From a virus: 64,000 nucleotides of DNA. The stretch's first letter is position 1. The number at the start of each line of letters is the position of its first letter. A program made the translations under genes and the position numbers. The notes beneath the pieces are model-generated. The model was not told the origin of the DNA. It searched no databases and saw only the letters and a list, made by a program, of their open reading frames with translations. The DNA is taken from the IMG/VR virus record IMGVR_UViG_3300047509_000085, positions 1-64,000 of that record. One strand, given 5' to 3'. Below are positions 31,944 through 55,105 of the stretch, piece after piece.

Positions 31944-31990
31944 ACCGCGTCGGTCGGGTAGCCACAACCAGCAACCTTCTCCGCGTCGGT
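31944..31990 (+). repeat. Two CCGCGTCGGT stem-loops in the portal leader
   Basis: ACCGCGTCGGT (31944-31954) and CCGCGTCGGT (31981-31990) each fold as CCG-CGT-CGG mini-hairpins. The same motif occurs three times in the capsid leader (40810-40900). The portal start follows 25 bases later. Confidence 0.5.
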
Positions 31991-32015
31991 GAGGTGGCAG
32001 ACTGATCGGTGCGCA

Positions 32016-34382
32016 ATGCCCGACGGCATGTCTATCAGAAGCCGGCAGCTCAATCATTCGGCGAACCCGCGCGAGGGGTTCGGCATGGGCGCGGCGCCGC
32101 CGGGCGGCGAGCCGCTGACGGCGGCGACGATTGAGATTGACGACGACGGCGGGGTGACGATCAAGGCGCCGGTGGCGGCGAAGGCGAACCGCCCGAAGCC
32201 CGACTCCTTCAGCAAGAACCTGGCGATGGAGGAGGACATTGCGCTGGCGTCGCTGGCGGAGGAAATCCTGGCCGGCATTGAGGCGGACCAGCAATCGCGC
32301 AAAATGTGGATCGAGAACTACAATGACGGCCTCGATCTGCTGGGCCTGACGATTGAGGACGCCAAGAGCACCAAGAGCGGGCCGGCGAGCAAGATTGGGC
32401 ATCCGCTGTTGTTGGGTGCTGTCATCAAGGCGCAGTCGGCGGCATCGGCGGAACTGCTGCCATCGGGCGGCCCGTGCAAGATCGCAACGCGGGATGGTGA
32501 CGACCAGGGCAGCGACGAACTGGCGCAGGCGCTGGAGTCGGATCTCAACTGGTACATCACGACGGGCAGCCCGGAGTTCTATCCCAATCTGGATCGTGGG
32601 CTGTTCGGGTTGTTTCTGAACGGGAACTTGTTTCGCAAGGTCTATGAGCACCCGGTGAAGCGCCGGCCGGTGGCGGAGACGGTCGAGGTATCGGACCTGA
32701 TCGTATCAGAGGATGCGGACGATCTGGAAACTGCGGTGCGGGTGACGCATCGGGCGGAGATGTCGCGGTCGGCTGTGAAGCGGATGCAATGGAAGGGGGT
32801 ATGGCGGGACATTGATCTCGCGTATCCGATGCCGATTGCGTCGAGCGAACAGAAGAAGCGCCAAGAGGTGCAGGGCACCACGAGTATCAGCCTGCGCCCG
32901 CAGGACATGAGTTACACGATATTGGAGACCACGACGGACCTCGATCTATCCGATTACGGGTATGAGGACCCGCACGCGCCGGATGATTTGCCGGTGAGCT
33001 ACATTGTGACGATCGACAAGGACAGCCGGCAGGTATTGGACATTCGGCGGGGCTGGAAGGCGGACGACGAGGAGTTTCAGCGCAAGCAGCGTTTCGTGCA
33101 TTACATGATGATCCCGGCGCTGGGTTTTCTGTGCCTGGGTCATTTGCACCTGCTGGGCAACCAGACGAAGGCGTTGCGGGCCATCTGGCGCATCCTCGTC
33201 ACCCTTGGGATGTACGGTTCGGCCCCGGCCGGTATCAAGGCGAAGAGCCTGCGGATGGGCACGAACGAGATCAACCCGCAGCCGGGTGAGTTCGTGGACA
33301 TCGACGTGGGTCCGTTCGACGACATATCCAAAGCGATCATGCCGTTTCCGTATAAGGACTTGTCGCAGGTGTTCGTGGCGTTTGCGGACAGCATCGGCAA
33401 GGAGAGCGGGAACCTGAGCAGTGCGGCTGATATGCCGGTTGGCGAGTCGCGTGTGGACATTCCGGTCGGCACGATCCTGGCGATGATCGAGCAGGCGACG
33501 CAGATGGCGAGCGCCATCCATAAGCGGCTGTATCGGGCGCAGGCTAGAGAGCTACAACTCCTCAAAGAATGTTTCGCTGAAAACCCGGAGGCGTTGTGGA
33601 AATTGAACCGGAAGCCGGCGCGGAAGTGGCAGAGTGCCGAGGAGTTTGCTGACACCGACCTGGTGCCGGCGAGCGACCCGAATGTGCCGTCACAGATCCA
33701 CCGGATCATGCTGGCGACGGCGATGGTGACGCTGGCGGGGCAGAACCCGGACATCTACGACCGGGTGAAGGTGCATGACCGCGCGTGGAAGAGCATTGGG
33801 GTGAATGATGCGGACACGTTCCTGCATGAGCCGGACCCGAATGCGGGCGGTGGCAAGCCCGGGCCGGCGCCGCCTGATCCGCTGATCGGGCAGGCGCGGA
33901 TGCTGGAGGCGCAGGCGAAGATCCAGTCGGCGCAGAACGCGCAGACGGACAGCCAGCGGAAGGCGGCGACGGAGGCGATTGAGGCGCAGCACAGCGGGCA
34001 GGCGTTGGCGCAGGAGGGTCAGACGCGGGCGGCGGAGTTGGCGTCGGAGCGTCAGATCGAGGCGGCGCGTCTGGCGGTGGAGCAGGAGCGGTTGCGGATT
34101 GAGCAGGTGCGGGCGGGCGCGCAGCATGACCTGGCGACACGACAGGCGGCGCACGGTGCGGCGATGGATGTTGCGGGGCACCACCTCGCGGTAGCGCAGC
34201 ACGGCCTCGACGTGGGGCAGGCGGCGGCGGAGCACCAGCGGGCGACGGACCAGCAGGAGCAGGACGCGACGAACGCCGAGCGCGAGCACGGGCGGGCGAA
34301 AGAGGAGCTCGGGATCAAGCGGAAGGTTGCGAACAAGCCGGTGCCGAAGCCGGCGGCGGCAAGACCGAGGGCGAAGAAATGA
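32016..34382 (+). CDS. Portal protein
   Basis: 788 residues from ATG 32016 (MPDGMSIRSRQLNHSANPRE); an ATG at 32028 is also possible. Podovirus portal features: SKIGHPLLLGAVIKAQSAAS, LPSGGPCKIATRDGDD and a crown segment (SAIHKRLYRAQARELQLLKE). The C-terminal ~180 residues are a long Ala/Gln/Glu coiled-coil barrel, ending in a basic KPVPKPAAARPRAKK tail. It forms the dodecameric DNA channel at the capsid vertex. The tail sequence is shared with another virion-type gene at 34898. Confidence 0.85.
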   Translation: MPDGMSIRSRQLNHSANPREGFGMGAAPPGGEPLTAATIEIDDDGGVTIKAPVAAKANRPKPDSFSKNLAMEEDIALASLAEEILAGIEADQQSRKMWIENYNDGLDLLGLTIEDAKSTKSGPASKIGHPLLLGAVIKAQSAASAELLPSGGPCKIATRDGDDQGSDELAQALESDLNWYITTGSPEFYPNLDRGLFGLFLNGNLFRKVYEHPVKRRPVAETVEVSDLIVSEDADDLETAVRVTHRAEMSRSAVKRMQWKGVWRDIDLAYPMPIASSEQKKRQEVQGTTSISLRPQDMSYTILETTTDLDLSDYGYEDPHAPDDLPVSYIVTIDKDSRQVLDIRRGWKADDEEFQRKQRFVHYMMIPALGFLCLGHLHLLGNQTKALRAIWRILVTLGMYGSAPAGIKAKSLRMGTNEINPQPGEFVDIDVGPFDDISKAIMPFPYKDLSQVFVAFADSIGKESGNLSSAADMPVGESRVDIPVGTILAMIEQATQMASAIHKRLYRAQARELQLLKECFAENPEALWKLNRKPARKWQSAEEFADTDLVPASDPNVPSQIHRIMLATAMVTLAGQNPDIYDRVKVHDRAWKSIGVNDADTFLHEPDPNAGGGKPGPAPPDPLIGQARMLEAQAKIQSAQNAQTDSQRKAATEAIEAQHSGQALAQEGQTRAAELASERQIEAARLAVEQERLRIEQVRAGAQHDLATRQAAHGAAMDVAGHHLAVAQHGLDVGQAAAEHQRATDQQEQDATNAEREHGRAKEELGIKRKVANKPVPKPAAARPRAKK

Positions 34383-37959: not shown

Positions 37960-38162
37960 TAACCGCGCTCGACCGCGTGACCCGCACGCTGGATCGCACC
38001 GGCTCGTGGGCAGCCTGGCGCATCGATGCGGCGCAGCACGCGGCGATGGTGGTGGAACTGCGGGAACTACGGATGCGCCAGGGGCTGCACGTCATTGAGG
38101 AGCCGGACGGTTCCGTGTGGGTGCAGGGGCGCAGGATCGGGGTGTGGCGGGAGGCTGAATGA
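37956..38162 (+). CDS. Small phage protein
   Basis: 68 residues from GTG 37956 overlapping the previous stop. Helical then beta hairpin (GLHVIEEPDGSVWVQGRRIG). Function unknown. Confidence 0.55.
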   Translation: MITALDRVTRTLDRTGSWAAWRIDAAQHAAMVVELRELRMRQGLHVIEEPDGSVWVQGRRIGVWREAE

Positions 38163-38398
38163 CGCCCTCTGCAAAGACAGCGCGGGAGTGGTGCACGCTG
38201 GAAGCGATCATGGAGCGGCGCGCGATAGCGGCAACCGCCTGCATGTTCCCGCCGGAACCGCCGCAGCGTTTTCAGGATCGGTTATGGGGGGTGTTTCTGG
38301 CGGACATGCCGGAACCGGCCATGCGGCTTCAGATCAGGCGAGTGCGTGGGCGCATTCGATGGCGTCACAAGAAGCGCCAGTTTTATGCCCGACGCTGA
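38159..38398 (+). CDS. Small basic phage protein
   Basis: 79 residues (MTPSAKTAREWCTLEAIMER), very basic C-terminus (RVRGRIRWRHKKRQFYARR). Nucleic-acid binding possible. Overlaps both neighbours. Confidence 0.55.
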   Translation: MTPSAKTAREWCTLEAIMERRAIAATACMFPPEPPQRFQDRLWGVFLADMPEPAMRLQIRRVRGRIRWRHKKRQFYARR

Positions 38399-38627
38399 CG
38401 CGCCCCCCAAGCTCGACGACCTGCTCGCGGTCTGCGCGCGGCAGTCGGGGTTACGGGAGCACGCGATGACACCGAGCCACGACACGCTGCGCGCAGCACT
38501 GGTGGCGTATCCGGCGCTGGCGGACGAAGCGCGGCAGCGGCTGGCGACGATCGATGCCAGCGTGCTGCTGCGGGATCACATCAGCCGATGGCTGAAGGCG
38601 ACATTGGAGGCCACGTTGGCCGGATGA
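38385..38627 (+). CDS. Small helical phage protein
   Basis: 80 residues from ATG 38385 (MPDADAPPKLDDLLAVCARQ); an ATG at 38466 would give a shorter form. Helical repeats. TGA overlaps the next ATG. Confidence 0.5.
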   Translation: MPDADAPPKLDDLLAVCARQSGLREHAMTPSHDTLRAALVAYPALADEARQRLATIDASVLLRDHISRWLKATLEATLAG

Positions 38628-39022
38628 AGATCGAGGAACTACCCATCTCGGTTCGGCTACTGAACGCGCTTAGGACGGCAGGGGTGCGGACGACGGATGA
38701 GATATGCGCCAGAAGTCGCACGGAACTTCTAAGAATACGCAACCTTGGTCGAAAGAGCGCTAACGAGTTGACCGAGGTATTGCAGGAACTTGGATTGAAG
38801 CTGGCGGCCGAACCGCTCGAAGCAGACCCATTGAAGTGGCCGGCATATACGCTCGATCCAAGAGCCGCCGAACGACGAGAGCGTGCCGGCGCCATGCGTC
38901 AGCGCGGGATGACGTTCCGAGAGATCGGAGCAAAGCTGAACGTAAGTACGGGGCGAGCACGCGCGATCGTCGTCAAATACGAACGGTCCCTGCGATATCC
39001 CGAGGGAGCAACCAGGACATGA
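38624..39022 (+). CDS. RNA polymerase alpha C-terminal-domain-like protein with HTH
   Basis: 132 residues from ATG 38624. Residues 3-55 (IEELPISVRLLNALRTAGVR, TTDEICARSRTELLRIRNLG, RKSANELTEVLQELGL) match the host alpha-CTD without gaps. Arg11, Asn14, Gly42, Lys44, Ser45 and Glu48 correspond to E. coli Arg265, Asn268, Gly296, Lys298, Ser299 and Glu302, the UP-element and activator contacts. The C-terminal half is an HTH (RGMTFREIGAKLNVSTGRAR). It could direct or block host polymerase at A+T-rich promoters. No alpha N-terminal domain is present. Confidence 0.8.
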   Translation: MKIEELPISVRLLNALRTAGVRTTDEICARSRTELLRIRNLGRKSANELTEVLQELGLKLAAEPLEADPLKWPAYTLDPRAAERRERAGAMRQRGMTFREIGAKLNVSTGRARAIVVKYERSLRYPEGATRT

Positions 39023-39960
39023 GCGGCGTAGTAGACGACGACGAGACCGGCACGCAGGGCAACGGCCATGCGGCGGTATCGGACGACGACCTTCGCGAAC
39101 TGCTGGCGCAGGAAAAGCGCGCACGGACCACGGCGGAGCAGCGGGCGGCAACGGAGCGCGAAGCCCGCGCCCGGGCCGAACGGGACCGCGACGAAGCCCG
39201 CGGCCAGGCGACATCGGCCACCGATCAGCGCTGGGTGGCGGAGGAGCAGAGCCTGGAGGCGGGGCTGGCGGCGGCCGAAAGCGAAGCCGAGGCGCTGGAA
39301 CACCGCATTGCGCAACTGAACGCCGACGGCTCGTTTGCCGAGGCGGCCAAGGCGTCGCGGGCGCTGGCGCGGGCCGAGGCGACAATCGGGCTGATCGGGC
39401 AGAAGAAGGAATGGCTCGCCCAGGCCAAGGAGATGGCAAAGCAGCCGCCACCGCCGGAACGGACGGAGCGGCGTGCGGGTCTCGACCTGTCGGGCTACTC
39501 GGCCAAGCAGCGCCGCTGGATCGAGGATCACCCGGAATACACGCAGATGGACGCGGCCGGCGAGCGGTTCCGCGCCCGAGTCGCTGCGGCGCACTACTCC
39601 GCCATGGCTGACAACATCCCCATCGATTCGGAGGATTACTTCTCTCACATCGAAAGTCAGAGTGCGACGGGATCACGGCGCCAGCGCGAGGTGGATGTTG
39701 ATGAGGGCGACGATCCGCCGCCGCGCGTGCAGCGGCGCGATGCTGGCGGAGCATTGCCGGTAACTCGACGCGCTCCTGGTGGCAACGGTGCGAGGTCAGG
39801 AGAAGTTAGACTGAGCCCGGAACAAAGGGAGGCCGCCGATTTTACGATGCCTGATGTTCCGATCGACGATTACGAACTGAATGGCATCCGCCAGCCGGGA
39901 CGTTATCGAAAGTATGCCCAGCTTCATGCGAAACTCAAAGGAGAGGGACGCTTGAACTAA
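39019..39960 (+). CDS. Scaffold protein candidate
   Basis: 313 residues, acidic N-terminus, long coiled coil (~25-145, rich in Ala/Glu/Arg) and a helical C-terminus (IRQPGRYRKYAQLHAKLKGE). It precedes the capsid genes, is highly charged and lacks enzymatic motifs, all typical of scaffolds. Direct homology not established. Confidence 0.6.
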   Translation: MSGVVDDDETGTQGNGHAAVSDDDLRELLAQEKRARTTAEQRAATEREARARAERDRDEARGQATSATDQRWVAEEQSLEAGLAAAESEAEALEHRIAQLNADGSFAEAAKASRALARAEATIGLIGQKKEWLAQAKEMAKQPPPPERTERRAGLDLSGYSAKQRRWIEDHPEYTQMDAAGERFRARVAAAHYSAMADNIPIDSEDYFSHIESQSATGSRRQREVDVDEGDDPPPRVQRRDAGGALPVTRRAPGGNGARSGEVRLSPEQREAADFTMPDVPIDDYELNGIRQPGRYRKYAQLHAKLKGEGRLN

Positions 39961-39985
39961 TGTATCAGCATGGTAGAGTTGAGTC

Positions 39986-40065
39986 TGTGGTGCGGCGCGG
40001 TGCGGTCAGGTTAGGTGAGGCGCGCTGTGGTGGGGTGAGCCGAGGCATGGTGCGGCAATGTATGG
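39986..40065 (+). repeat. Degenerate pentanucleotide array YNNGG, copy 1
   Basis: Sixteen consecutive five-base units, perfectly in phase: TGTGG, TGCGG, CGCGG, TGCGG, TCAGG, TTAGG, TGAGG and so on. All sixteen begin with C or T and thirteen end in GG. It fills the gap between scaffold and capsid-associated genes. GG every five bases could form two-tier G-quadruplexes. Confidence 0.6.
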
Positions 40066-40069
40066 AGAG

Positions 40070-40106
40070 TGGCGGCAGGGGTTATGCTCTTGCCGCCATT
40101 CGCATT
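40070..40106 (+). terminator. Hairpin terminator candidate
   Basis: TGGCGGCAGG pairs with CTTGCCGCCA over ten positions (one wobble), followed by TTCGCATTTT. It separates the array from the capsid-gene ribosome site. Confidence 0.45.
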
Positions 40107-40122
40107 TTAGGAGCTTGAACTG

Positions 40123-40584
40123 ATGGCCATCACACTCCAACGCAGCGATCAGCGCAGCGAGCAGAGGCCGAGGCAAAGATTGCAAATCCGCACGCCCGGC
40201 AATCGCTTCGACATCGACCAGAGCCGTATACCGCAGGGGATGGCGTACGAGTGGAAGCGCAAGAACTTCATGGGCGCCGAGGACATCGAGCATCTGGTGA
40301 ATTTGGATGCGAACGGCTGGACCGCGGTGCCGGCCGAGCGCCATCCGGAACTGAGCGGCACGCGGTTGCAGTCCGGTTCCGAGATCGTGCGCGGCGGCCT
40401 GATGCTGATGGAGCGCCCGGTCGAGATCACCGAGGAGGCGCGCGAGCTGGACGGCTTCGCGGCGAAGAACGCGGTGGCAAGCCAGGTGCAGCGGCTTGGC
40501 CTGAGCGCGCGCACGGTGAAGGGCGGGATCAAGAGGAGCTACGCTCCGCCGCCAGAGGATGCGATGGTGGCAGAGGATGAATAG
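40123..40584 (+). CDS. Conserved virion-operon protein before the capsid genes
   Basis: 153 residues with ribosome site AGGAG. RFDIDQSRIPQGMAYEWKRK, then GAEDIEHLVNLDANGWTAVP, AERHPELSG and IVRGGLMLMERPVEITEEAR match a conserved podovirus protein found just upstream of the major capsid protein. Function unknown. Confidence 0.7.
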   Translation: MAITLQRSDQRSEQRPRQRLQIRTPGNRFDIDQSRIPQGMAYEWKRKNFMGAEDIEHLVNLDANGWTAVPAERHPELSGTRLQSGSEIVRGGLMLMERPVEITEEARELDGFAAKNAVASQVQRLGLSARTVKGGIKRSYAPPPEDAMVAEDE

Positions 40585-40925
40585 GGGTATCCTGCGGCCT
40601 CGCATGGCGCAGCGTGTTTCTATGCAGCGTGTACCTGGTTCGGCAGCCCGGCAAGCGTGTCGCATAGGAATGATCGGATGACCTGCTGCCGACTGATTCC
40701 GGTGCCTCGCCGCCATGCGCCTTGCTTTTCCCACGAATACAGCGCGATAGTGCGCCTAGCCGCCCGATCAGATGTAGCGCTCTACCGCTTTCCCTGATCT
40801 GAGCCGCCTCCCCGCGTCGGGGAACATACGGAACCTGGGAGGTGGCACCGCGTCGGTCCACCTCCCGCCAGAACCTCAACCAGAGCCTCGCCGCGTCGGT
40901 GGGCCGCACATAGCGGAGCACGACG
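40585..40925 (+). promoter_or_regulatory. Structured leader of the capsid genes
   Basis: 340 bases without a convincing gene. It holds CCCCGCGTCGGGG (40810-40822), a long hairpin GGGAGGTGG...CCACCTCCC (40837-40866) enclosing ACCGCGTCGGT, and CCGCGTCGGT (40891-40900). Three copies of the motif seen before the portal gene suggest shared post-transcriptional or promoter control. A minus-strand ORF across it is low-complexity and rejected. Confidence 0.5.
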
Positions 40926-41546
40926 ATGGCAGCCAATCCCCTGGCGCCTTCCGGTTTCAGCACTGCCAGGCAATTCGCCGGCGGTGTGCCGAACTACGGC
41001 AACCGCGAAGCACGCATTGCCTACAACTACACCGCCGCCCAGATCGCCTACGGTGATCCGGTCATCCTGTTCACCGACGGGACAATCCGCCTCTACACCA
41101 AGGGGCTCACCACCTGCTTCGGCATCTTCCGCGGCTGCAAGTACCTCAACCCGAACTCCGGGCGAATGGACTGGTTCGCCGGCTGGACCGCGCCCACGCT
41201 GCCGTCAACCACGGTGGTCGAGTGCTCAATCGACGCCGATCCGCTGATGACGCTGCAATGCCAGATGCGCGGCACGGCGCTCACCCAGGCATCGGTCGGG
41301 CTGAACGTCGATATCTTCACCGGCACGTCCGGCGTCCCGACGCTGGCCCCGGCACTCATCTCCACCTGCGCGCTGGATGGCACCGCAGCCAACACCGCGA
41401 CGCTGCCGTTCCGGCTGCTGCGCCTGGTGCCGGCGCCCGTCAACAGCGGGCCGTTTGGCTACAACGAACTGAACGACAACCAAATCTGGGAAGTCGCCAT
41501 CAACACCAGTCCGAACCCGACTGGCACGCGAACCGGCCAGGCATAG
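40926..41546 (+). CDS. Virion structural protein next to capsid
   Basis: 206 residues (MAANPLAPSGFSTARQFAGG), beta-rich, with GDPVILFTDGTIRLYTKG and LRGCKYLN-type blocks seen in head-decoration or minor capsid proteins. Immediately upstream of the major capsid gene. Precise role unknown. Confidence 0.6.
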   Translation: MAANPLAPSGFSTARQFAGGVPNYGNREARIAYNYTAAQIAYGDPVILFTDGTIRLYTKGLTTCFGIFRGCKYLNPNSGRMDWFAGWTAPTLPSTTVVECSIDADPLMTLQCQMRGTALTQASVGLNVDIFTGTSGVPTLAPALISTCALDGTAANTATLPFRLLRLVPAPVNSGPFGYNELNDNQIWEVAINTSPNPTGTRTGQA

Positions 41547-41558
41547 GGAGCAGCGGAC

Positions 41559-42467
41559 ATGGCAATCAACAGATCCCAAATCCGTGACTTCCTGCTGCCG
41601 GGTCTGGCAGACATCGAAGGCAAGTATCCGCAGATACCCACGCGCTGGCGCGAGTTCCTGGCGACGGGGACGAGTAAGATGGCGCTCGAACGCATCGCCG
41701 AGGCCCGCTACACGGGTCTCGCGCAGCTCAAGAGCGAGGGCAGCGCCACGACGTTCGACAATGCGCCGGGCGAGCGGTTTGTCTGGAACATCGAGCACAA
41801 GACCATCGGGCTCGGGTTCGCGATCACGGCGGAAGCGCTGGAGGACAATCTCTACAAGGACCAGTTCAATCCGCAGAGCATGGGGTTGCTGGAGTCCTTC
41901 GCGCAGACCAAGGAGATTTTGAACCATCAGTTGCTGAACAGCGCCGGCACATTCAATCCACTGTTCGGCGGCGATGGGCAGGCGTTGCTGTCGACTGCGC
42001 ATCCGATCGACAACGGCACCTACGCCAACCGGCCGGCGGTGGACCTGGACTTCAACGAGGCGGCCGTGGAAACCGCGCTGAACCAGATCAGGCAGTTCCC
42101 CGATCAGGCTGGGCTGCTGTCGATGAGCCGCGGGCTAAAGGTCATCGTGCCGCTGGCGCTGCAGTGGCAGGCGGAACGGCTGTTCAAGACAGAACTGCGG
42201 GTTGGCACGGCGAACAACGATGTGTCGGCGATCCTTTCGTCAGGAGCCTTGCCCGAAGGGTTCGCAGTCAGCGAATTTCTGACGAGCAACTTCAGCTGGT
42301 TTATTACCACTAACGTTAAGGGGTTAGTGTACTACGAACGCGCGGCGTATGAAATGGACCTCCAAGTCGATCCCACAACCGGCAACCTACTCGTTATTGG
42401 ACGGGAACGATATGGAAGCGGAATAAAGAACCCTCGCGGAATTTGGGGAACAATGCCGACTTCGTGA
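41559..42467 (+). CDS. Major capsid protein, HK97-fold candidate
   Basis: 302 residues. Key segments: SKMALERIAEARYTGLAQLK (N-arm), VWNIEHKTIGLGFAITAEAL, ALLSTAHPIDNGTYANRPAV and FLTSNFSWFITTNVKGLVYY, with MDLQVDPTTGNLLVIGRERY near the end: the pattern of Mu-like/podovirus major head proteins. Assembles the icosahedral shell. Confidence 0.8.
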   Translation: MAINRSQIRDFLLPGLADIEGKYPQIPTRWREFLATGTSKMALERIAEARYTGLAQLKSEGSATTFDNAPGERFVWNIEHKTIGLGFAITAEALEDNLYKDQFNPQSMGLLESFAQTKEILNHQLLNSAGTFNPLFGGDGQALLSTAHPIDNGTYANRPAVDLDFNEAAVETALNQIRQFPDQAGLLSMSRGLKVIVPLALQWQAERLFKTELRVGTANNDVSAILSSGALPEGFAVSEFLTSNFSWFITTNVKGLVYYERAAYEMDLQVDPTTGNLLVIGRERYGSGIKNPRGIWGTMPTS

Positions 42468-42488
42468 TTACGGAACAGGAATAACCCC

Positions 42489-42935
42489 ATGGCAGGACCA
42501 GGAACCAACGTCGGCGGCCCGCTGCTTGTCGGCTCGACCGCCGCCAACTCCGGCAGCACGCTGCTCAACCAGACGGTGACGCTCGTCGCCAGCACCACCA
42601 ATGCGGTGTCGGCGACCATGACCGTGCCGCCCAACACGCAGATCGTGGATTTCACCATCGACACGACGACCGCCTGGAACAGCGCCACGTCCGACACGCT
42701 CACCATCGGCACCGTGGCCGGCGGCACGCAGTACGTCGGGGCCATCGACACCAAGGCGGCTGCCAGCAGGCTTCGCCCGACCTACACCGGGCCGCAACTG
42801 CTCGCGATGTCGAACACCGCCGGCAACACGGCGGTTGTCGTCACGGTGACGCCGGTCGGTAGCGCGGCGGCCGGCAACACCATCGTCACGATGTTCTACG
42901 ACATGAACGTCACGCAGTTGGACAGCAACTTCTAG
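42489..42935 (+). CDS. Head decoration-like protein
   Basis: 148 residues, Thr/Ala/Val-rich beta pattern (LLNQTVTLVASTTNAVSATM, TVPPNTQIVDFTIDTTTAWN). Position after the capsid gene suggests a decoration or stabilisation protein. Confidence 0.55.
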   Translation: MAGPGTNVGGPLLVGSTAANSGSTLLNQTVTLVASTTNAVSATMTVPPNTQIVDFTIDTTTAWNSATSDTLTIGTVAGGTQYVGAIDTKAAASRLRPTYTGPQLLAMSNTAGNTAVVVTVTPVGSAAAGNTIVTMFYDMNVTQLDSNF

Positions 42936-42937
42936 CC

Positions 42938-43276
42938 ATGGTCGCGCCGATCACCCTGACACAGACCGGCGTCGGGTCCAGCGTCTGGAAAGTGCCAGCG
43001 CATAATATGGACCCGTTCTCGCTGCGGATCGAGATGTCCGTGACCGGCACGGTGGGATTCGCGCTTGAATACACCATGAGCGATGTGACCTCTGTCGGCG
43101 GATGGTTCGCCGCGGCACCTCCTGCGCCGATTGTTCGGCCAACAGCGGTTGCCGGGGCAGCCGGCGCGGCCGATTTTGTCTTCGATTCCCCGATCCGCGC
43201 CTGGCGCATCACCGTGGCATCCGGCACCGGGACAGTGACCGCCGAGGCCATCCAAGCCGGCATCGGCAACATCTAA
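42938..43276 (+). CDS. Beta-rich virion-type protein
   Basis: 112 residues (MVAPITLTQTGVGSSVWKVP), beta-strand pattern with Gly-rich turns; ends PIRAWRITVASGTGTVTAEA. Probably structural, unassigned. Confidence 0.55.
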   Translation: MVAPITLTQTGVGSSVWKVPAHNMDPFSLRIEMSVTGTVGFALEYTMSDVTSVGGWFAAAPPAPIVRPTAVAGAAGAADFVFDSPIRAWRITVASGTGTVTAEAIQAGIGNI

Positions 43277-43289
43277 AGGAGCACGACAC

Positions 43290-43646
43290 ATGGCACGCAA
43301 GCGTAAGCGCAGCTACGGCGGACGGACGGGGTCCGGCGACGCCTACAACGCCGTCGGCACGCCGGCCATGGCCCGCGCCAAGGCCACGACATCCAGCGGC
43401 TTCGCCTCCGGCGGCGCCACCACCGGGCGCAAGCGCGGCGGAATGATTGAAGGCAGCCCATCGGAAGAACGAGCCGATAAACGAGCGCGGGGCGGTTCTA
43501 TTCCCGGTCGCGCCCATGGCGGAGCGGTTCGCGGATTGAAGAGTTCCGGCGGCAGCCCGTTTTCGTCAGCCCGTAGCCTGACCGGAGCATCCGGCAAGAG
43601 CGGGGCGGGCATGGAGGGAAGCGAAGAAGCCCCTGGCGAGCCCTGA
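43290..43646 (+). CDS. RGG-rich small virion-type protein
   Basis: 118 residues. Basic and Gly/Ser-rich, with FASGGATTGRKRGGMIEG and ARGGSIPGRAHGGAVRG turns like those in genes at 35699, 51991 and 55106. Disordered throughout. Confidence 0.55.
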   Translation: MARKRKRSYGGRTGSGDAYNAVGTPAMARAKATTSSGFASGGATTGRKRGGMIEGSPSEERADKRARGGSIPGRAHGGAVRGLKSSGGSPFSSARSLTGASGKSGAGMEGSEEAPGEP

Positions 43647-43648
43647 AA

Positions 43649-44497
43649 CTACAAGAGAAATCCGCGCTCCCGCATGAACTCTATTGGGTCTTTTGCGCCC
43701 TTCTTAGCATTGCACCTTCGGCACAATATCTGAATGTTCTGCCGGACGTGCGGACCCCCTTTCTTGAGGGGTATGATATGATCGACCTGGAACGCGGTAA
43801 GACGCTCCCGACAGACCGCACATTTGCCGCGTTGGGCGGCGAATATGGCTTTCACTTCCTTTGCCGTGATCCTGCCGGACGATCGCTTGGCTTGGGTCCG
43901 CTTCTCTTCGTTGAGCCGCTTGATGGTGACGAGTTTCTGCGGGTCGGTAGCGCGCAGATTAGCGAACCATGCTCGGTTGTACTTCCTGACGTGATCGCCG
44001 TTCAGTATGCGCCACTCCCGCATGTACAGCTTTTGCTGTGGTTTCGCTCTTTCCCTATAGGCTGGCTTTTTGGCCTTTACATAATCTCGTTGGTGATAGG
44101 CGGCTGCATAGGCTTTTACATGTTCCTTATTAGACTGACGCCATTTGTCGATCTTGGTCTTGCGCTTCTCTTTGTTGTTCTCGCGCCACTCGCGCTGAGT
44201 GGCCTTCTCCTTTTCGATATTGGCTACGCGGTAAGCCTTTCTGTACGCCAGGAGCTTCGGTCTGTCTTTTGCGTATCGAGCCTTCTGGTAGCCCTTAACT
44301 TTTTCTATGTTCTTTTCGCGGTATTCTTTCGCGTAAGCCTTGACGTGCTCTTTGTTCTCAGCGCGCCAGTCCGACATGCTGAACTTGCGCGTCTCGCTTT
44401 CGCCAAGGGTGCGATACTTGCGCATGTAGGCAGCACGTTTGGCGCGATGCGCGGCCTTGCGCGCAGCTTCAATGTCATGGTCAAAGAGATCAGCCAT
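43649..44497 (-). CDS. HNH endonuclease with repeated basic helices
   Basis: 282 residues. Residues 25-175 are about eight imperfect repeats of a basic W/Y...NKEHVKAY-type helix, probably DNA-binding. The C-terminal HNH domain is CAVCRERLTAFQVDHIIPLK, KGGPHVRQNIQILCRRCNAK. It is antisense to the capsid operon and lower in GC, marking a homing insertion. Confidence 0.85.
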   Translation of the reverse strand: MADLFDHDIEAARKAAHRAKRAAYMRKYRTLGESETRKFSMSDWRAENKEHVKAYAKEYREKNIEKVKGYQKARYAKDRPKLLAYRKAYRVANIEKEKATQREWRENNKEKRKTKIDKWRQSNKEHVKAYAAAYHQRDYVKAKKPAYRERAKPQQKLYMREWRILNGDHVRKYNRAWFANLRATDPQKLVTIKRLNEEKRTQAKRSSGRITAKEVKAIFAAQRGKCAVCRERLTAFQVDHIIPLKKGGPHVRQNIQILCRRCNAKKGAKDPIEFMRERGFLL

Positions 44498-44598
44498 CGG
44501 TTCCTCTCACACAGGGCCATGGTCAGGGGCGGCAAACGGCGTTCGAGCGCCTTTGCCGTTCCGATTGTATCATGCCTCTCTAACGGGGCAATGGTGTA

Positions 44599-45651
44599 AT
44601 GGCATCATCGCCGGGATGGGTTCAAGGCTACGTCCCTACGGCGAATGAGTGGAACGCCGCCTTCGCCGCCAAGCTCGATGTCGCGACCGTCGTCACCAGC
44701 TTCAACACCCGCACCGGCCCGATCACCCTCGGGCCGACCGATGTCACCACCGCGCTCGCCTTCACGCCCTACGACGCCGCCAACCCCGCCGGCTACGTCA
44801 CGGGCGCCGACGCAGCCGCCACCTACCTCACCATCACCAACGCCACCGCGACCTATCTGACGCAGGCCGCGGCGGCTGCCACCTACCTCCCCGCCACGTC
44901 CGTCCTGCCGTCGCTGCAAGGCTTCCTGGGCGGCCTCAACGTGGCGCAGAACATCGCCACGCCGCTGACCTCGCTGGACATCGCAGCAGGCGGCGCGACC
45001 GACAGCTTCAACGCCTCGGTCATCATTCTCCCCTTCGGCCTCACCAAGAGCATCGCCGCGACATGGGCCGCCGGCACCGCCGCGGGCGGCATGGGAACCG
45101 GGCTCACCGTCGCCGCCTCCACCTGGTATCACGTCTACCTCGCCACCATCGGCGGCAATACCGATGTGTTCTTCGACACCACGTTCGGTCCGACACATGC
45201 GCCGGTCGGCACCACGGCCGTCCGCCGCATCCGCAGCTTCAAGACGGACGGCGCTTCGCACATCATACCCGACGCGCAGAACGGCGACCGGATAGATTGG
45301 CTGACTCCCATCAGCGAATTTGTCGGTATTCCAGGCGTCACAACCGCTATCGTCCAGACCTTGTCAGCCGTGCCAACCGGCGTTTCCGTTGCAGCCATAT
45401 TGTACTCTGAAGGCAGCGACGGTACTCCGGCTGCTGGCACATCTTATCTGTCATCACTTGCCCAGACAGACGTTCCATCCGGGTTTCCAGCGGCAACGGT
45501 GCATTGGACGGCGTCTGTCCTTAACCTGTCCACCGGGGTCGCAACCATTATGACCAACTCGGGTGCTAACATCAGACGGCGCGTCAGCACGACCACTGCG
45601 ACCGTCAGCATCGCAACGCTTGGCTACATCGACACGCGCGGGCGCGGATGA
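44599..45651 (+). CDS. Tail-fibre-like protein
   Basis: 350 residues. Short repeats (AATYLTITNATATYLTQAAA, AAATYLPATS) in the first 120 residues, then a beta-rich domain. WVQGYVPTANEWNAAFAAKL is a common opening of phage fibre proteins. Likely host-contact protein. Confidence 0.65.
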   Translation: MASSPGWVQGYVPTANEWNAAFAAKLDVATVVTSFNTRTGPITLGPTDVTTALAFTPYDAANPAGYVTGADAAATYLTITNATATYLTQAAAAATYLPATSVLPSLQGFLGGLNVAQNIATPLTSLDIAAGGATDSFNASVIILPFGLTKSIAATWAAGTAAGGMGTGLTVAASTWYHVYLATIGGNTDVFFDTTFGPTHAPVGTTAVRRIRSFKTDGASHIIPDAQNGDRIDWLTPISEFVGIPGVTTAIVQTLSAVPTGVSVAAILYSEGSDGTPAAGTSYLSSLAQTDVPSGFPAATVHWTASVLNLSTGVATIMTNSGANIRRRVSTTTATVSIATLGYIDTRGRG

Positions 45652-45995
45652 TGGCGTGGGTGCAGATCGACGGTGGCGGCAAGGTGACGGGCATCTATGG
45701 CGGCCCGCAGCCGAACATCGCAGGCGTGACCAGCATCCCCGACAACGATGCGCGCGTGGTGGCGTTCCTGACCCCCGGCAAGCCGCAGCGTATCACGTCG
45801 ACACAGTTCTTGAACCGGCTGCCGCCTGCTGTGCTGCCAGGGCTCACTGCCAACCCGCAGACCTTGATTATGCTCATCACGCTCGCCGCTGCCGGGGACA
45901 TCGATCTGACCGATCCTGCCGTGGCCGCCGGGATCAACGCGCTCGTGCCGTCAGTGCTGACCGCCGCGCAGGCAGCGGCGGCGTTGGATCACTGA
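45648..45995 (+). CDS. Small tail-associated protein
   Basis: 115 residues (MMAWVQIDGGGKVTGIYGGP), beta-rich start and helical end (VPSVLTAAQAAAALDH). Overlaps the fibre gene by four bases; possibly a fibre chaperone or tail protein. Confidence 0.5.
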   Translation: MMAWVQIDGGGKVTGIYGGPQPNIAGVTSIPDNDARVVAFLTPGKPQRITSTQFLNRLPPAVLPGLTANPQTLIMLITLAAAGDIDLTDPAVAAGINALVPSVLTAAQAAAALDH

Positions 45996-46002
45996 GGCAC
46001 CC

Positions 46003-46776
46003 ATGAGCGGCACCACATTCCCCTCCGACATCGGTGACTTCGACATCGGCCTCTCGCCCATCGGCGCCGCCGTGCCAGGCGGGACCAACCTGTTCGGGCC
46101 GCCGCTGTCCGACATGATGGTCGACATAATGGAAAGGGTCGGCATCGATCTGGCGAAGGTCGAAACGCGCCATGTAATTAGTTGCAGACGTAGTATGAAT
46201 CTGGTCCAGTCGGATCTTGCCAACATAGGCATCAATGCATGGACCGTGCGGCTGTTCTCCACGGTGCTTGTGCAGGGGCAGGCTGCCTACCCGGTAGCCG
46301 CCGGCACGATCGATCTCTTGGACGCTTATTTGACGCTTCCCGGAACCGGCGGCGGCAATGTGCCGGTCGATATCGGTATGGCGAAGCTATCGCGCTCTGA
46401 TTACGCGAATATCCCCCAGAAATTACAGGCTGGCCGCCCCACGAGTTTGTTCTACTTTGACGCTCCGTCTCGTGGTCCAAAGGCTGTCTACACATGGCCA
46501 GTTGCGGACGGTAACGGGCCATACATCCTCAACTGGTACGGCTTTATGCAGATGTATCAGGCCGATCCCATGTCGGGCGCCATCGCTGATGTGCCGGCGC
46601 GGTTCTATCGGGCCTATGTAAGTGCGGTTTCTGCCGACTTGTCGCTAAAATACGCTCCCGAAAAATACCAGATGCTCGCTGGCATTGCCGCCGATAGCAT
46701 GCAGCGCGCGGCCGATGGGGACACTGAGAAGGTCAACCTCAATCTGGCGCCGTCGCTCGATGATTACTTCAGGTGA
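46003..46776 (+). CDS. Podovirus head-tail adaptor-like protein
   Basis: 257 residues. VETRHVISCRRSMNLVQSDL, GINAWTVRLFSTVLVQGQAA, YPVAAGTIDLLDAYL and PARFYRAYVSAVSADLSLKY are the elements of adaptor/tail-tube (P22 gp4-like) proteins. Lies before a second adaptor-like gene. Confidence 0.65.
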   Translation: MSGTTFPSDIGDFDIGLSPIGAAVPGGTNLFGPPLSDMMVDIMERVGIDLAKVETRHVISCRRSMNLVQSDLANIGINAWTVRLFSTVLVQGQAAYPVAAGTIDLLDAYLTLPGTGGGNVPVDIGMAKLSRSDYANIPQKLQAGRPTSLFYFDAPSRGPKAVYTWPVADGNGPYILNWYGFMQMYQADPMSGAIADVPARFYRAYVSAVSADLSLKYAPEKYQMLAGIAADSMQRAADGDTEKVNLNLAPSLDDYFR

Positions 46777-46782
46777 TGCGCG

Positions 46783-47544
46783 ATGCAGTACCCTGATGTC
46801 CTCGCCGCTGTGCAGATTTACTGCCAGCAAGTAGCTCCCAATACGGGGATTGATTTCGCCGCCATCACGCCGGTTCTGCTGAACGCAGCGGAACTGCGCA
46901 TCTACCGGGACATGCCGCTGCTCGCGGCCGAGGGGCAGAACACGACCTTGATATGTGTGCCCGGCAATCCTCTGTTGTCGCTTGCCGCGTTGCCGGGTCA
47001 GGTGACGGCGCCTGTGGTACTGCAAGGTGGCGCGCTGGCATATCCCAACCCCCTCACCGTGCGCCGTGTCGCGCTGCTGGTACCCGGCATTCCGCCCGCG
47101 CTCAATGGCTGGGTGGAGTTCCTGCGAGTCAGCCTCGACCTGTTGCAGAACATCTGGCCACAACCGACCGAGGTGCAGGTGCCGGTCATCGGCAGTTCCT
47201 ACTGGGCCATGCAGGACGACGTTTCAATCTATGTGGCCCCCACGCCACCGCAACCCTATCAGGTCCGCGTCATCGGCCTGTGGCGGCCCGCGCCAATGTC
47301 CGGGACTAACCCCGAGACGTATCTGGGGGACGTGCTGCCCGATCTCCTGGTCGCGAGTCTGATGCTTGAGGCAAGTGGCTACATGCAAAACTATGGCTCG
47401 CAGGCTGATGATCCCAAGATGGCGGTATCTTGGCTGCAAATGTACCAATCGAAGCTGGAAGCGGCGAAGCGCGAAGAACGAATGCGCCGCGGCCTCGCCC
47501 CGGAACCGCCAGCACCGCAAGCCGCAGCGGCAGGAGCGCCGTAA
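46783..47544 (+). CDS. Second adaptor-like virion protein
   Basis: 253 residues. AALRIYRDMPLLAAEG-type start, VIGSSYWAMQDDVSIYVAPT, GLWRPAPMS and LPDLLVASLMLEASGYMQNY match adaptor-type neck proteins; a basic/Pro-rich tail ends it. Works with the preceding gene in the neck. Confidence 0.65.
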   Translation: MQYPDVLAAVQIYCQQVAPNTGIDFAAITPVLLNAAELRIYRDMPLLAAEGQNTTLICVPGNPLLSLAALPGQVTAPVVLQGGALAYPNPLTVRRVALLVPGIPPALNGWVEFLRVSLDLLQNIWPQPTEVQVPVIGSSYWAMQDDVSIYVAPTPPQPYQVRVIGLWRPAPMSGTNPETYLGDVLPDLLVASLMLEASGYMQNYGSQADDPKMAVSWLQMYQSKLEAAKREERMRRGLAPEPPAPQAAAAGAP

Positions 47545-50678: not shown

Positions 50679-51395
50679 ATGGCAGAGGAAATCTGGCGGC
50701 CAGTCCCCGGTTTTGAAAGCTACTACGAGGTCAGCGATCTTGGCCGCGTGAAGTCATGCGCCCGCTCTGTGCTCCGTGTGCGTCAGGGGGTTGACGGCGA
50801 ACTGAAGATACCTGAACGCATTCTAAAACCACGCAAAAGTGGGAGTGGGTATTTTTCAGTCCACCTTTACAAGGACGGGTTGGGTAAGAATCACGATTTA
50901 CATAGGCTAGTCCTCTTAGCGTTTATGGGCCATTCACATGCCGGAGAAGAGGGTTGCCATAACGATAGGGATAAGTCGAATAACCGCCTTAGCAATCTAC
51001 GATACGACACGCCCAAGAACAACCATGCCGATAAGTACAGGCATGGCACCGCGCTCTTTGGAGAGAAGAACCATCTCGCTGGCCTCAACGATGAGGTTGT
51101 TATGGCGATTCGCGCATTAAAGGGTCGCAAGACCATGAAAGAAATTGGTGAAATGTTTGGCGTAAGACCGCTGAATATTGCAAATATTTTGGCGGGGAGA
51201 ACGTGGTCTCATCTTGGCGGCTTCGGGCCGCCGCCTAAACGATGGAAGATTTCAGACGAGCAGGCAGAGGCGATCAGGCAACTCACCGGCAAAGAAGTGC
51301 GTAGCGTGACGGCCAAGAGGTATGGCGTCACTAAAAGCTGCATCCAGCACATCCAACATGGTCGTGTCCGAATGCCGCCGGCTCAGGTGCCATGA
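50679..51395 (+). CDS. NUMOD4-HNH homing endonuclease
   Basis: 238 residues. NUMOD4 (IWRPVPGFESYYEVSDLGRV), HNH_3 core (LHRLVLLAFMGHSHAGEEGC, HNDRDKSNNRLSNLRYDTPK) and two C-terminal HTH units (TMKEIGEMFGVRPLNIANIL; VTAKRYGVTKSCIQHIQHG). Lower GC than the tail genes around it. Homing insertion between tail genes. Confidence 0.88.
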   Translation: MAEEIWRPVPGFESYYEVSDLGRVKSCARSVLRVRQGVDGELKIPERILKPRKSGSGYFSVHLYKDGLGKNHDLHRLVLLAFMGHSHAGEEGCHNDRDKSNNRLSNLRYDTPKNNHADKYRHGTALFGEKNHLAGLNDEVVMAIRALKGRKTMKEIGEMFGVRPLNIANILAGRTWSHLGGFGPPPKRWKISDEQAEAIRQLTGKEVRSVTAKRYGVTKSCIQHIQHGRVRMPPAQVP

Positions 51396-51991: not shown

Positions 51992-53067
51992 TGCCGAGCA
52001 CGAGTCAGGCACAACATCGGTTCATGGAAGCCATCGCCCACAACTCGGCGTTCGCCAAGAAGGCCGGAGTTCCGCAGCGCGTCGGCAAGGATTTCGCCGC
52101 AGCGGACCTGAAGGCAGGCATCACCAAGACGCACAACGGCAAGCCGATCAAGCGGGCGGACGGCGGCAGCGTCGACGATCCGAACGCCATCGGCGGCATT
52201 GCTCCCACGCAGGCAACCGCCTCGCCGCAGGTGCAGGACATGATGCAGCGGTTCGCCGGCATGCCCGCCGAGCAACTGCAAGAGGCGGTGATCCGCATGG
52301 GGCCGACCTCGCCGATGGGTGCGCTCGCATCGCGCGTGCTCGCGCAGAAGCGGATGATGCCGACCAGCCAGCAACAGGGATTCGCCAACCCTGGCCAGCG
52401 TGGAATGCCGCGCGCACCGACACCCGCCGCGCAACCGAACCTGCAACCAGGCGCCACCGCCGAGCAGCAGACCGGCCAGGGGCTCGCCAAGTCGCTCGGG
52501 CAGATCATGGGGAACGACACGGAGACGCCAGCCACGCAGCCGCAGGGGTTCGCGCTGGGCGGGATGCCCATGATGTCGATGTCGCAGGCCGATCCGCCAT
52601 GGTCGCGCGGGGCGTCCCGGTCGATGGGCGCTCCGATGCCGACGCGCGGGTTCCTGGCAGGGCCGACGCCAGGACGCGCCGATGCTATCCGTGGTGCGCC
52701 GGCTGTTGGTTCCTACGTGCTCCCGGCCGATATTGTTTCGCACTTCGGGTCCGGCAGTAGTCTCGCAGGTGCACACGCGCTATCGGCAGCGTTCTCCAGC
52801 GGACCCTATGGTACGTCGATCCCGCATGGTGGCGGACGTGGGCCGCCTCGCGCACCGGCTCCGTTCCACATGACGCGAGGCGGAGCGACGGACACCGTGC
52901 CGGTTGAACTTTCGGATGGCGAGTACGTCATCCCGCCGGAGATCGTAAGCCAGATCGGGCACGGCGATGTGTCCCGAGGTCACAAAGTGCTCGATAAGTT
53001 CGTGGAACATACGCGCAAGAAACTTATATCGACCTTGAAGAAATTACCGGGACCAGTTCGCTCATGA
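51991..53067 (+). CDS. Virion protein with QAQHRFM start and VPVELSDGEYVIP motif
   Basis: 358 residues. STSQAQHRFMEAIAHNSAFA, KKAGVPQRVGKDF is the start of a widespread phage protein. The middle is Pro/Gln-rich and disordered. RGGATDTVPVELSDGEYVIP, PEIVSQIGHGDVSRGHKVLD is a motif found at the ends of tape-measure and other virion proteins. Likely an ejection or internal protein. Confidence 0.65.
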   Translation: MPSTSQAQHRFMEAIAHNSAFAKKAGVPQRVGKDFAAADLKAGITKTHNGKPIKRADGGSVDDPNAIGGIAPTQATASPQVQDMMQRFAGMPAEQLQEAVIRMGPTSPMGALASRVLAQKRMMPTSQQQGFANPGQRGMPRAPTPAAQPNLQPGATAEQQTGQGLAKSLGQIMGNDTETPATQPQGFALGGMPMMSMSQADPPWSRGASRSMGAPMPTRGFLAGPTPGRADAIRGAPAVGSYVLPADIVSHFGSGSSLAGAHALSAAFSSGPYGTSIPHGGGRGPPRAPAPFHMTRGGATDTVPVELSDGEYVIPPEIVSQIGHGDVSRGHKVLDKFVEHTRKKLISTLKKLPGPVRS

Positions 53068-53603
53068 TCGAAAACCCACAGGGCATCCGCAAGGCTGGCA
53101 TCCATGATTTGCTGCCGCTGATCGGATCGGCCTCCATCATCCTTGGCGAAAGTGCGCTGCAAGCGTTGTCGCCAGAGAAAGTCGCGGCCCTGGTACAGAG
53201 ATGCGTGGAGTTTGATCGCGCGCTAGCGGGTATCATTTCCGGACCAACAGGCATCGAAGCATCAATCGGTCTTGTGATTGAATCCTTCGATTATAGCGAC
53301 GAGCAACATCTGAGCGTGAAGTGGCTCGGGGTTCATCCAGAATTTCAGCGGAAGAATCATGGTGCCACGCTGATGAGCTTCGCCAAGTGGGCGCAGGAAA
53401 TGGTCGGCGTTCCGTTGTTCATGGGCCTCTCTACGCTCGAAGCGCTGCAAGCGAAGCTGCACTTGTTCGTAAGAAGCGCGCCGCAGGTCGGAGCGCTGTT
53501 CTCTTTCGGAGGAGCGCCGCACGGGGCGTTTAACCAACGCGCTCCGGGGCATGATCCGTTCATGGAACACAAGAAGTCGCGTGCCAGACCGCAAGCCGCC
53601 TAG
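53064..53603 (+). CDS. GNAT-like acetyltransferase
   Basis: 179 residues. LGVHPEFQRKNHGATLMSFA carries the Q/R-x-x-G-x-G/A acetyl-CoA signature in a weakened form (RKNHGA), with LSVKWLGV as the preceding strand. It overlaps the second GNAT gene. Role among virion genes is unclear; protein modification of host targets is possible. Confidence 0.6.
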   Translation: MIENPQGIRKAGIHDLLPLIGSASIILGESALQALSPEKVAALVQRCVEFDRALAGIISGPTGIEASIGLVIESFDYSDEQHLSVKWLGVHPEFQRKNHGATLMSFAKWAQEMVGVPLFMGLSTLEALQAKLHLFVRSAPQVGALFSFGGAPHGAFNQRAPGHDPFMEHKKSRARPQAA

Positions 53604-54054
53604 CTTCCCGGCCGGCGTTCGCTTCTGCCAAGAGGGCGATTGCCCAGCGTTGTTCGACATTTTCATGGAAGCGCATCGGCTTGGCGGCTGGATGAACGTC
53701 AACGAGGATATTGTCCGTGACGTGATTGCCCGCGCGACTAGGCGAGACACATTCGCCATTGCGGTCATTCCTGGGCCAACGTGCGTTGAAGGTGTTATCG
53801 CTTTTCAGCCGGTCAGGCAATGGTACGGGAACCAAGATAGCTGGTATTGGAGCGAGCTTTTGCTATTTGTCAGGGTAGAATACCGAAAGTCTCGCCATGC
53901 TTGGAAGTTGCTGCAATTTGCTAAATGGTTCCAGCATGCAGTGAATGCGCCGGTGATGGTGTCTCTGATGCCAAAAGAGGATTTTGACAGAAAGGAACGC
54001 TTGCTGGGGCGCTTCGGTAAGCGCGTCGCCAGTAGCTTCCTGATCAATGTGTAA
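53581..54054 (+). CDS. Second GNAT-like protein
   Basis: 157 residues from GTG 53581 (alternative ATG 53551). SELLLFVRVEYRKSRHAWKL followed by LQFAKWFQHAVNAPVMVSLM repeats the layout of the preceding GNAT protein at low identity, with the acetyl-CoA loop degenerate (YRKSRHA). Probably a diverged duplicate. Confidence 0.5.
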   Translation: MPDRKPPSFPAGVRFCQEGDCPALFDIFMEAHRLGGWMNVNEDIVRDVIARATRRDTFAIAVIPGPTCVEGVIAFQPVRQWYGNQDSWYWSELLLFVRVEYRKSRHAWKLLQFAKWFQHAVNAPVMVSLMPKEDFDRKERLLGRFGKRVASSFLINV

Positions 54055-54083
54055 AGCGGAGACGGCTGAGATAGCCGCCTCCT

Positions 54084-54277
54084 CCCTGCCTTACCGCACC
54101 ACGGCTCGCCTCGCCCCGGCTAACCCAGCCTTGGCTTGCCACGCCGGACCTGACCAAGCCCGCCATGCCGCGCCACGCCTCACCATGCCAGTCCTAGCCC
54201 GGCCACGCCTCACATTGCCATGCCTCGCCTCGCCCAGCCCGGCCTCACCGTGCCTTACCCCGCCTAGCCCTGCCTGT
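54084..54277 (-). repeat. Degenerate pentanucleotide array YNNGG, copy 2
   Basis: Thirty-nine consecutive units: 38 pentamers and one four-base unit (54159-54162). Read on the minus strand: ACAGG, CAGGG, CTAGG, CGGGG, TAAGG, CACGG, TGAGG and onward. 32 of 38 pentamers match YNNGG. It touches the stop codon of the leftward gene at 54277 and lies in its likely transcript. Positions two and three vary freely. Confidence 0.7.
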
Positions 54278-54879
54278 TACGCCACTTTACGCAGAGTTGG
54301 CTTCTTCCCAGCCAACTCCGCCCAACGAACCAAAGCAAAACGCCCAAACGGCCCACCGCGTTCTGGCCGATAGTCGCCAAGTCCTAACCGCTTGCCAGAT
54401 TCTTCCAGTAACTGATGCACCGTGTCGGACTCAATCATTGATAAATCTATGTCGATGTTAATGTCGGCGCCCCACGAATTTAGCCGTGGACGGTGACGCA
54501 TGATCCTGCCCTTGGTGCTTGGAATGACCACTGGCCTTGAATCCACTTCAAAAGTGCGTAACGGGTTCCCGTCATCATCAATAAGACTGATTTCCTCATC
54601 CAACACGAGCACCGCTGCTGGGACAACAAACTTGAGGGACTTCCGACTGCCGCGCTGCTTGTGACTGCCGCCGGCCTCACGCAACATCCGAGCTACTGAA
54701 CTTCCCGGAATAAACAGCGTTCCGTCTGTTCGCTGATAGGCAACTTTTGTCGCTTCCTCGCGCGGATCGCCACGTTTGATGTGGATGGCTCGCGTTGTTT
54801 CTTCGACCTCTGATGCCTCCGCCCAGCGGTGCATCAGCATTGCCGACGTGCCGGATATACTAGCTACGAAAATTGCCAT
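54277..54879 (-). CDS. Conserved phage protein of unknown function, adjacent to the YNNGG array
   Basis: 200 residues from ATG 54879 (MAIFVASISGTSAMLMHRWA). Conserved points: GTSAMLMHRW, DPREEATKVAYQRTDGTLFI, DSRPVVIPSTKGRIMRHRPR and the Gly-rich end GLGDYRPERGGPFGRF. This pattern occurs in many phage and prophage genes. A fold like RAMP/Cas7 RNA-binding proteins is possible from the Gly-rich segment but unproven. The only leftward gene in this region. Confidence 0.65.
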   Translation of the reverse strand: MAIFVASISGTSAMLMHRWAEASEVEETTRAIHIKRGDPREEATKVAYQRTDGTLFIPGSSVARMLREAGGSHKQRGSRKSLKFVVPAAVLVLDEEISLIDDDGNPLRTFEVDSRPVVIPSTKGRIMRHRPRLNSWGADINIDIDLSMIESDTVHQLLEESGKRLGLGDYRPERGGPFGRFALVRWAELAGKKPTLRKVA

Positions 54880-55105
54880 GCCTCTTGTCCTTGTGCTTGG
54901 ATTGATGCCACTGGACACAGACATGGATGCTGTATGATGTTCGATAAGCCATCGCGAGGTCTGATCTCCGGTGGTCAGGGTGGCCATCACCTCCGCACGA
55001 GGTGGTGGTCTCCCGCATCCTAGCATGACAATCGGCCACGTCTAGCCTATAGTGGCCTCATTCGATCATTCTCGCGCGTCGCGAGCCTCACGTGGAAGGC
55101 TCTAG

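What the first reader, a model, noticed from the sequence alone, without database searches (positions are those of the whole stretch)
39986..40065. Second YNNGG array upstream of capsid genes
Sixteen units in perfect phase, all starting with a pyrimidine, 13 ending in GG, including units identical to those of the long array (CAATG, CATGG, TGAGG, CGAGG). It is followed by a terminator-like hairpin. Two arrays of the same rule in one genome, far apart and on opposite strands, argue against chance.
Basis: seen in the sequence. Interest (0 to 1): 0.7.

Follow-up and report, generated by a model that had tools for sequence, protein, structure and literature searches.

The report
Orphan phage guide RNA against siblings
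The odd five-base repeat is a guide RNA of a recently described phage RNA-guided system called VIPR; read with that system's code it spells a slightly different version of the gene it sits beside, which suggests that it silences that gene in closely related rival phages.

Summary
The 2026 VIPR preprint (PMC13142463, main text read) describes this rule: guide RNAs ("vrRNAs") of 9-16 YNNGG units whose NN pairs read DNA with a 1-nt skip, held by a RAMP protein, Vipr. The genome encodes a Vipr at 54277-54879 (-): phrog_4652, the family of SUSP1 Vipr, E 8e-15; its predicted fold matches Csm3/Cas7-type subunits. The second array lies directly downstream of it. The finding's array is thus an orphan guide about 14 kb from vipr on the other strand.

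Decoded, array A reads VAAA[HQ]Y[DE]AVG[DE][DE][IM]A[NK][IM]. Its best genome match is in the probable capsid-assembly gene directly upstream (23/32, in frame); a related phage's homologue matches better (25/32). Tract B2 of the other array likewise decodes to its neighbour gene. Only the 1-nt skip gives this (4/4000 and 3/4000 shuffles); tract B1 is not significant alone. I infer guides against sibling alleles, each encoded beside the carrier's own diverged allele. No fully matching target was found; self-regulation is not excluded.

The parts
39986..40065 (+). Array A: guide tract of an orphan vrRNA, 16 YNNGG units (the finding)
   Evidence: decoded
40066..40101 (+). Hairpin tail of array A (could also be drawn as a pseudoknot AGAG/CTCT with TGGCGGCA/TGCCGCCA)
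   Evidence: fold -28.7 kcal/mol; local alignment with the tail of array B reached by 73 of 5000 shuffles
39019..39960 (+). Gene directly upstream of array A; probable capsid-assembly (scaffold-like) protein by position between portal and major head protein; own diverged allele of the inferred target. Start inferred from homologue L007; the ORF is open from 38836
   Evidence: no family hit
39580..39627 (+). Own counterpart of array A's decoded target, 23/32 NN bases, in codon phase (VAAAHYSAMADNIPID)
54277..54879 (-). vipr gene, 200 aa from the internal ATG (ORF open to 55026)
   Evidence: phrog_4652 E 8.4e-15, phmmer to SUSP1 Vipr 1e-6, model and PDB matches to Csm3/Cas7-type subunits
54163..54277 (-). 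Array B, tract B1: 23 units directly after vipr
54084..54158 (-). Array B, tract B2: 15 units, out of phase with B1 by one 4-nt unit
54050..54085 (-). Hairpin tail of array B
   Evidence: fold -21.2 kcal/mol
53551..54054 (+). Gene convergent with array B (GNAT-like by eye; no family hit); own diverged allele of the inferred target of B
   Evidence: homologue at 33% identity in G001
53803..53847 (+). Own counterparts of B2 (53803-53838) and B1 (53818-53847) targets, in frame, overlapping

Best explanation
Array A is the guide tract of an orphan vrRNA of a VIPR system. It is probably transcribed with the late genes (inferred), ends in a hairpin tail, and is bound in trans by the phage's own Vipr (gene at 54277-54879, -), a Cas7/Csm3-like RAMP protein. 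The GGY letters seat the protein; the NN letters pair with DNA, skipping every third base, which falls on the codon wobble position. The decoded sequence is an allele of the capsid-assembly gene of sibling phages, so the complex would bind and silence that gene in a co-infecting relative, while the phage's own diverged allele, encoded directly upstream of the guide, escapes. Array B uses the same logic against its own neighbour gene. Shown here: array, vipr gene, code match, location. Inferred: expression, binding, silencing, immunity of the own allele.
For: Same repeat rule and same code as in the preprint; scanner control finds four arrays in SUSP1, one upstream and three downstream, as described there. 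Vipr homologue in the genome with RAMP fold. 28 of 29 Vipr-encoding loci carry arrays, 0 of 80 capsid-related loci do. Decoded A and B2 match their neighbour genes in frame only at the 1-nt skip: A 4/4000, B2 3/4000 shuffles, against 37-396 of 400 at other skips. 13 contigs matched the first 8 units of A; one of them is a syntenic relative, and the match is in the homologue of that very gene, 25/32. The homologous column is the best in-frame place in 4 of the 6 family members scored (own, L020, L024, L021) and tied in one (L023).
Against: No expression data. No target with a full match was found. B1 alone is not significant (960/4000). Genome-wide the 23/32 self-match of A is reached by 13 of 200 shuffles. 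L018 and L022 homologues do not score best at the column. No vap gene recognised; SUSP1 vap1 family not found, without a positive control ringing.
Confidence: 0.78

Rival explanations
1. The vrRNA regulates the phage's own genes: partial pairing with the adjacent own gene tunes capsid-assembly expression, as degenerate self-targeting CRISPR guides do (recalled comparison).
For: The own gene next door is the best match in the genome and its first six NN pairs match 12/12; both arrays sit beside their match.
Against: A relative's allele matches better, 25 against 23 of 32; 5 of the 7 units that miss the own gene agree with a relative at the same column, but this is weak (788 of 5040 permutations, 777 of 20000 random draws do as well).
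Confidence: 0.15
2. The array is a relic: a vrRNA that once targeted a competitor or an ancestral allele and is no longer used.
For: 3 of 16 units have lost the GG; no exact target found.
Against: All 16 starting pyrimidines and the phase are intact; SUSP1 arrays, sequenced as RNAs in the preprint, also carry GG deviations; the hairpin tail is stable.
Confidence: 0.12
3. A transcription terminator or attenuator element, or a simple repeat without guide function.
For: Hairpin after the array.
Against: Vipr gene in the genome and identical rule; 28 of 29 Vipr loci with arrays against 0 of 80 others; no terminator found; decoding result.
Confidence: 0.03

Closest known systems
VIPR systems (Vipr + vrRNA), PMC13142463, bioRxiv 2026.04.26.720920
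   Same: YNNGG units, structured tail, RAMP-like Vipr of phrog_4652, in a phage, array beside vipr, 1-nt skip decoding into coding DNA.
   Different: One guide (A) lies about 14 kb from vipr on the other strand; guides decode to homologues of the gene beside them; no vap gene recognised. The main text describes guides against satellites and resident prophages; its supplement was not read.
Free-standing homing endonucleases and marker exclusion in T4-like phages, PMC2988022 (passages read)
   Same: Element encoded next to the carrier's own allele of the gene attacked in a co-infecting relative.
   Different: RNA-guided binding instead of an endonuclease; no cleavage, no gene conversion and no spread shown here. 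Analogy only.
Csm3/Cas7-type RAMP subunits of type III and type VII CRISPR effectors
   Same: Predicted fold.
   Different: 8-16% identity in the listed VIA-align rows; the vipr gene is followed by a YNNGG array, not by CRISPR repeats.

Membership tests
VIPR system | 9-16 tandem YNNGG units with conserved GGY and variable NN | tested here: met
   16 units in array A. Array B has 23 + 15 units, longer than 9-16; other vipr loci have up to 87.
VIPR system | vipr gene (RAMP homologue) in the same genome | tested here: met
   phrog_4652 E 8.4e-15; PDB matches all Csm or type VII in the 50 rows shown.
VIPR system | 3' structured tail after the repeats | tested here: met
   Hairpins of -28.7 and -21.2 kcal/mol; similarity between the two tails is modest (73/5000).
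VIPR system | 1-nt skip decoding to a target | tested here: inconclusive
   Related alleles found only at skip 1 (A, B2); a fully matching target was not found.
VIPR system | vrRNA expressed and bound by Vipr; repression of the target | not testable with these tools
   Needs experiments.
VIPR system | vap accessory gene (typical, not universal) | tested here: inconclusive
   phrog_5926 (SUSP1 vap1 family) not found in the own record, no positive control rang; other vap families not tested.
CRISPR-Cas (class 1) | CRISPR array and cas genes beside the RAMP gene | not tested
   No CRISPR-specific search was run; the repeats beside vipr are YNNGG units and PADLOC gave nothing for the 4 proteins tried.

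The most novel reading that the evidence does not exclude
VIPR guides can be unlinked from vipr and planted beside the carrier's own, diverged allele of the gene they attack in siblings: an RNA-guided form of marker exclusion in which guide and immune allele travel together, so that recombination rarely creates a phage that targets itself. A similar placement is seen in another vipr locus, L127, where an array starts just after an ORF that it decodes to (19/26).
Probability: 0.4. Interest if true: 0.85.

Novelty: new variant of a known kind. Interest (0 to 1): 0.72.

Why it matters
It adds a phage lineage to a system described only months ago, supports the 1-nt skip code from sequence alone, points to sibling phages' structural genes as targets, and suggests a placement rule (guide beside the carrier's own diverged allele) that bears on how a phage avoids targeting itself and perhaps on where guides come from. 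Both are testable with a reporter.

Tried and rejected
Terminator or attenuator: no terminator found at 39800-40200. Known RNA family: no Rfam match in the window at gathering threshold. Defence library: PADLOC none for 4 proteins. Nucleotide relatives of 38000-47000 in the phage collection: none. Close relatives of the Vipr or of the upstream gene in viral contigs by single-protein scan: none; the upstream gene in the phage collection: none. Tblastn of one peptide consistent with decoded array B against phages: only weak hits, best E 0.8. Capsid protein in genome contigs: no relative. Vipr family in 6 capsid-related records: none, without a positive control ringing. B2 likeness to QKSFQNSYGDEFTNR in capsid-related phages (20/30): rejected, since 26 of 200 shuffled guides reach 20 or more in the own genome alone. 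At the amino-acid level B1's best own match is elsewhere in the genome (score 39, below the shuffled 95% point of 45). Survey of adjacent self-likeness over 70 distinct arrays: skip 1 gives 5 with p<=0.01, against 1 of 70 at each other skip; two of the five are this window's, one is L127; those of L121 and L126 contain in-frame stops and are probably chance. In one search the column for L022 was located by a pattern and is probably misaligned; I left L022 out. B1 was never scanned as a DNA pattern in the collections.

Full report
Observation. The 16 units at 39986-40065 are as described. The log-odds score of 48.6 compares with a maximum of 19.3 in 60 whole-window simulations and 14.3 in 2000 local-composition simulations. 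The other array lies on the minus strand at 54277-54084, as 23 and 15 units with one 4-nt unit between. No further array exceeded a score of 15 in the window or 13 in positions 63001-69619 of the record.

Identification. A paper search returned PMC13142463. I read its whole main text, not its supplement. It reports phage-borne VIPR systems: a RAMP-like Vipr protein and vrRNAs of 9-16 YNNGG repeats followed by a structured tail, reading DNA through the NN dinucleotides with one skipped base between them. A search for the terms vrRNA, Vipr, VIPR systems and YNNGG from 2024 on listed 20 of 608 papers; among those listed only this one is about the system. As a positive control my scanner found four arrays in the first 50 kb of SUSP1, one upstream and three downstream of two hypothetical genes, as the paper describes. 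The larger gene, which I take as vipr, belongs to phrog_4652.

Vipr in the window. ORF 54277-55026 (-) matches phrog_4652 at 8.4e-15 and SUSP1 Vipr at 1e-6. A model from 20 homologues has mean pLDDT 80.9; its best PDB matches are Csm and type VII Cas7-like subunits, Z up to 12.5 over 164 residues. The long array begins where vipr ends. Related vipr loci (41-44% identity in alignment A5) carry arrays just downstream, up to 47 and 80 units. Of 29 loci found with the Vipr alignment A3, 28 carry at least one array; L130, matched near a contig end, has none (several loci are near-identical). Of 80 loci of capsid-related phages, none does (some of these are AT-rich distant relatives). In the 5 named phages and 29 loci examined the arrays lie within about 2 kb of vipr (three phages and the loci were seen only in part), so array A's distance of about 14 kb is unusual.

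Decoding array A. Read with a 1-nt skip, the NN letters give GTxGCxGCxGCxCAxTAxGAxGCxGTxGGxGAxGAxATxGCxAAxAT, an open reading VAAA[HQ]Y[DE]AVG[DE][DE][IM]A[NK][IM]. The best place in the 69.6-kb genome is 39580-39627, in frame within the gene directly upstream, 23/32. Over the whole genome that score is not remarkable (13 of 200 shuffles reach it). Within 1.5 kb, 4 of 4000 shuffles reach the local score at skip 1, and 385, 347 and 220 of 400 at skips 0, 2 and 3. A scan of viral contigs with units 1-8 gave 13 contigs. One, L007, is a syntenic relative (portal 63%, head protein 89% identical) and its match, 25/32, is in the homologue of that gene. In homologues the aligned column scores 25 (L020, same contig as L007), 22 (L024), 19 (L021), 18 (L023, tied with another place), 15 (L018, not the best place) and 6 (L022, probably misaligned). 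I conclude that the guide fits an allele of this gene that is neither the phage's own nor L007's. A scan with units 4-13 found no contig.

Decoding array B. B2's best place within 1.5 kb is 53803-53838, in frame in the gene convergent with the array (FQPVRQWYGNQD), 3 of 4000 shuffles. B1's best place is 53818-53847, overlapping it; its score is not significant (960 of 4000), but its location coincides. B1 and B2 may be two guides against different alleles of one gene (inference). A scan of viral contigs with B2 units 1-9 found nothing.

Mechanism. In the preprint's experiments a Vipr-vrRNA complex represses transcription at its target on either strand without a PAM. Applied here, the phage would silence a sibling's capsid-assembly gene and a second gene in co-infection, while its own mismatched alleles escape. 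Placing the guide next to the immune allele keeps both together through recombination. This resembles marker exclusion by free-standing homing endonucleases, where several known target genes adjoin the insertion site (PMC2988022, passages only). It is an analogy; no cutting or spread is shown. L127 gives a third case: an array that starts 4 nt after an ORF whose last sense codon ends at 3429 and that decodes to that ORF, 19/26, with 0 of 40 shuffles as good in that locus and p = 1/301 locally.

Limits. No expression data, no complete target, unknown host. Self-regulation is not excluded: 5 of the 7 own-mismatched units agree with some relative, but 788 of 5040 permutations do as well. The role of the 39019-39960 gene in capsid assembly is inferred from its place between portal (31989-34382) and major head protein (41559-42467). 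The novelty label rests on guide placement; the system itself is known.

Noticed in passing
L100:32030-32203 and L101:47026-47110 (Gordonia phages Trine, MakoManhole): Sequence after the arrays looks like the 3' half of a tRNA (GGTTCGACTCC), so these guides' 3' ends may be made by tRNA processing.
   Followed up: no
L099:8019-8088 (Pseudomonas phage Medea1): The guide decodes to the phage's own tape measure gene at 13369-13410 with 23/28 matches (0 of 60 shuffles as good), about 5 kb away: again a guide resembling an own structural gene.
   Followed up: partly
L127:3433-6773: Eight arrays of up to 87 units interleaved with genes around vipr; the first lies directly after an ORF that it decodes to.
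   Followed up: partly
GU169904.1 (hit H15): A record named Staphylococcus phage SA1 carries a Vipr 98.5% identical to that of E. coli phage SUSP1; the host label may be wrong.
   Followed up: no
window 53064-53603 (+): A second, weakly acetyltransferase-like gene (PF13508, below cut-off) overlaps the start of the gene matched by array B.
   Followed up: no
window 15394-16452 and 50679-51395 (+): A DNA methyltransferase and an HNH endonuclease in the same genome.
   Followed up: no
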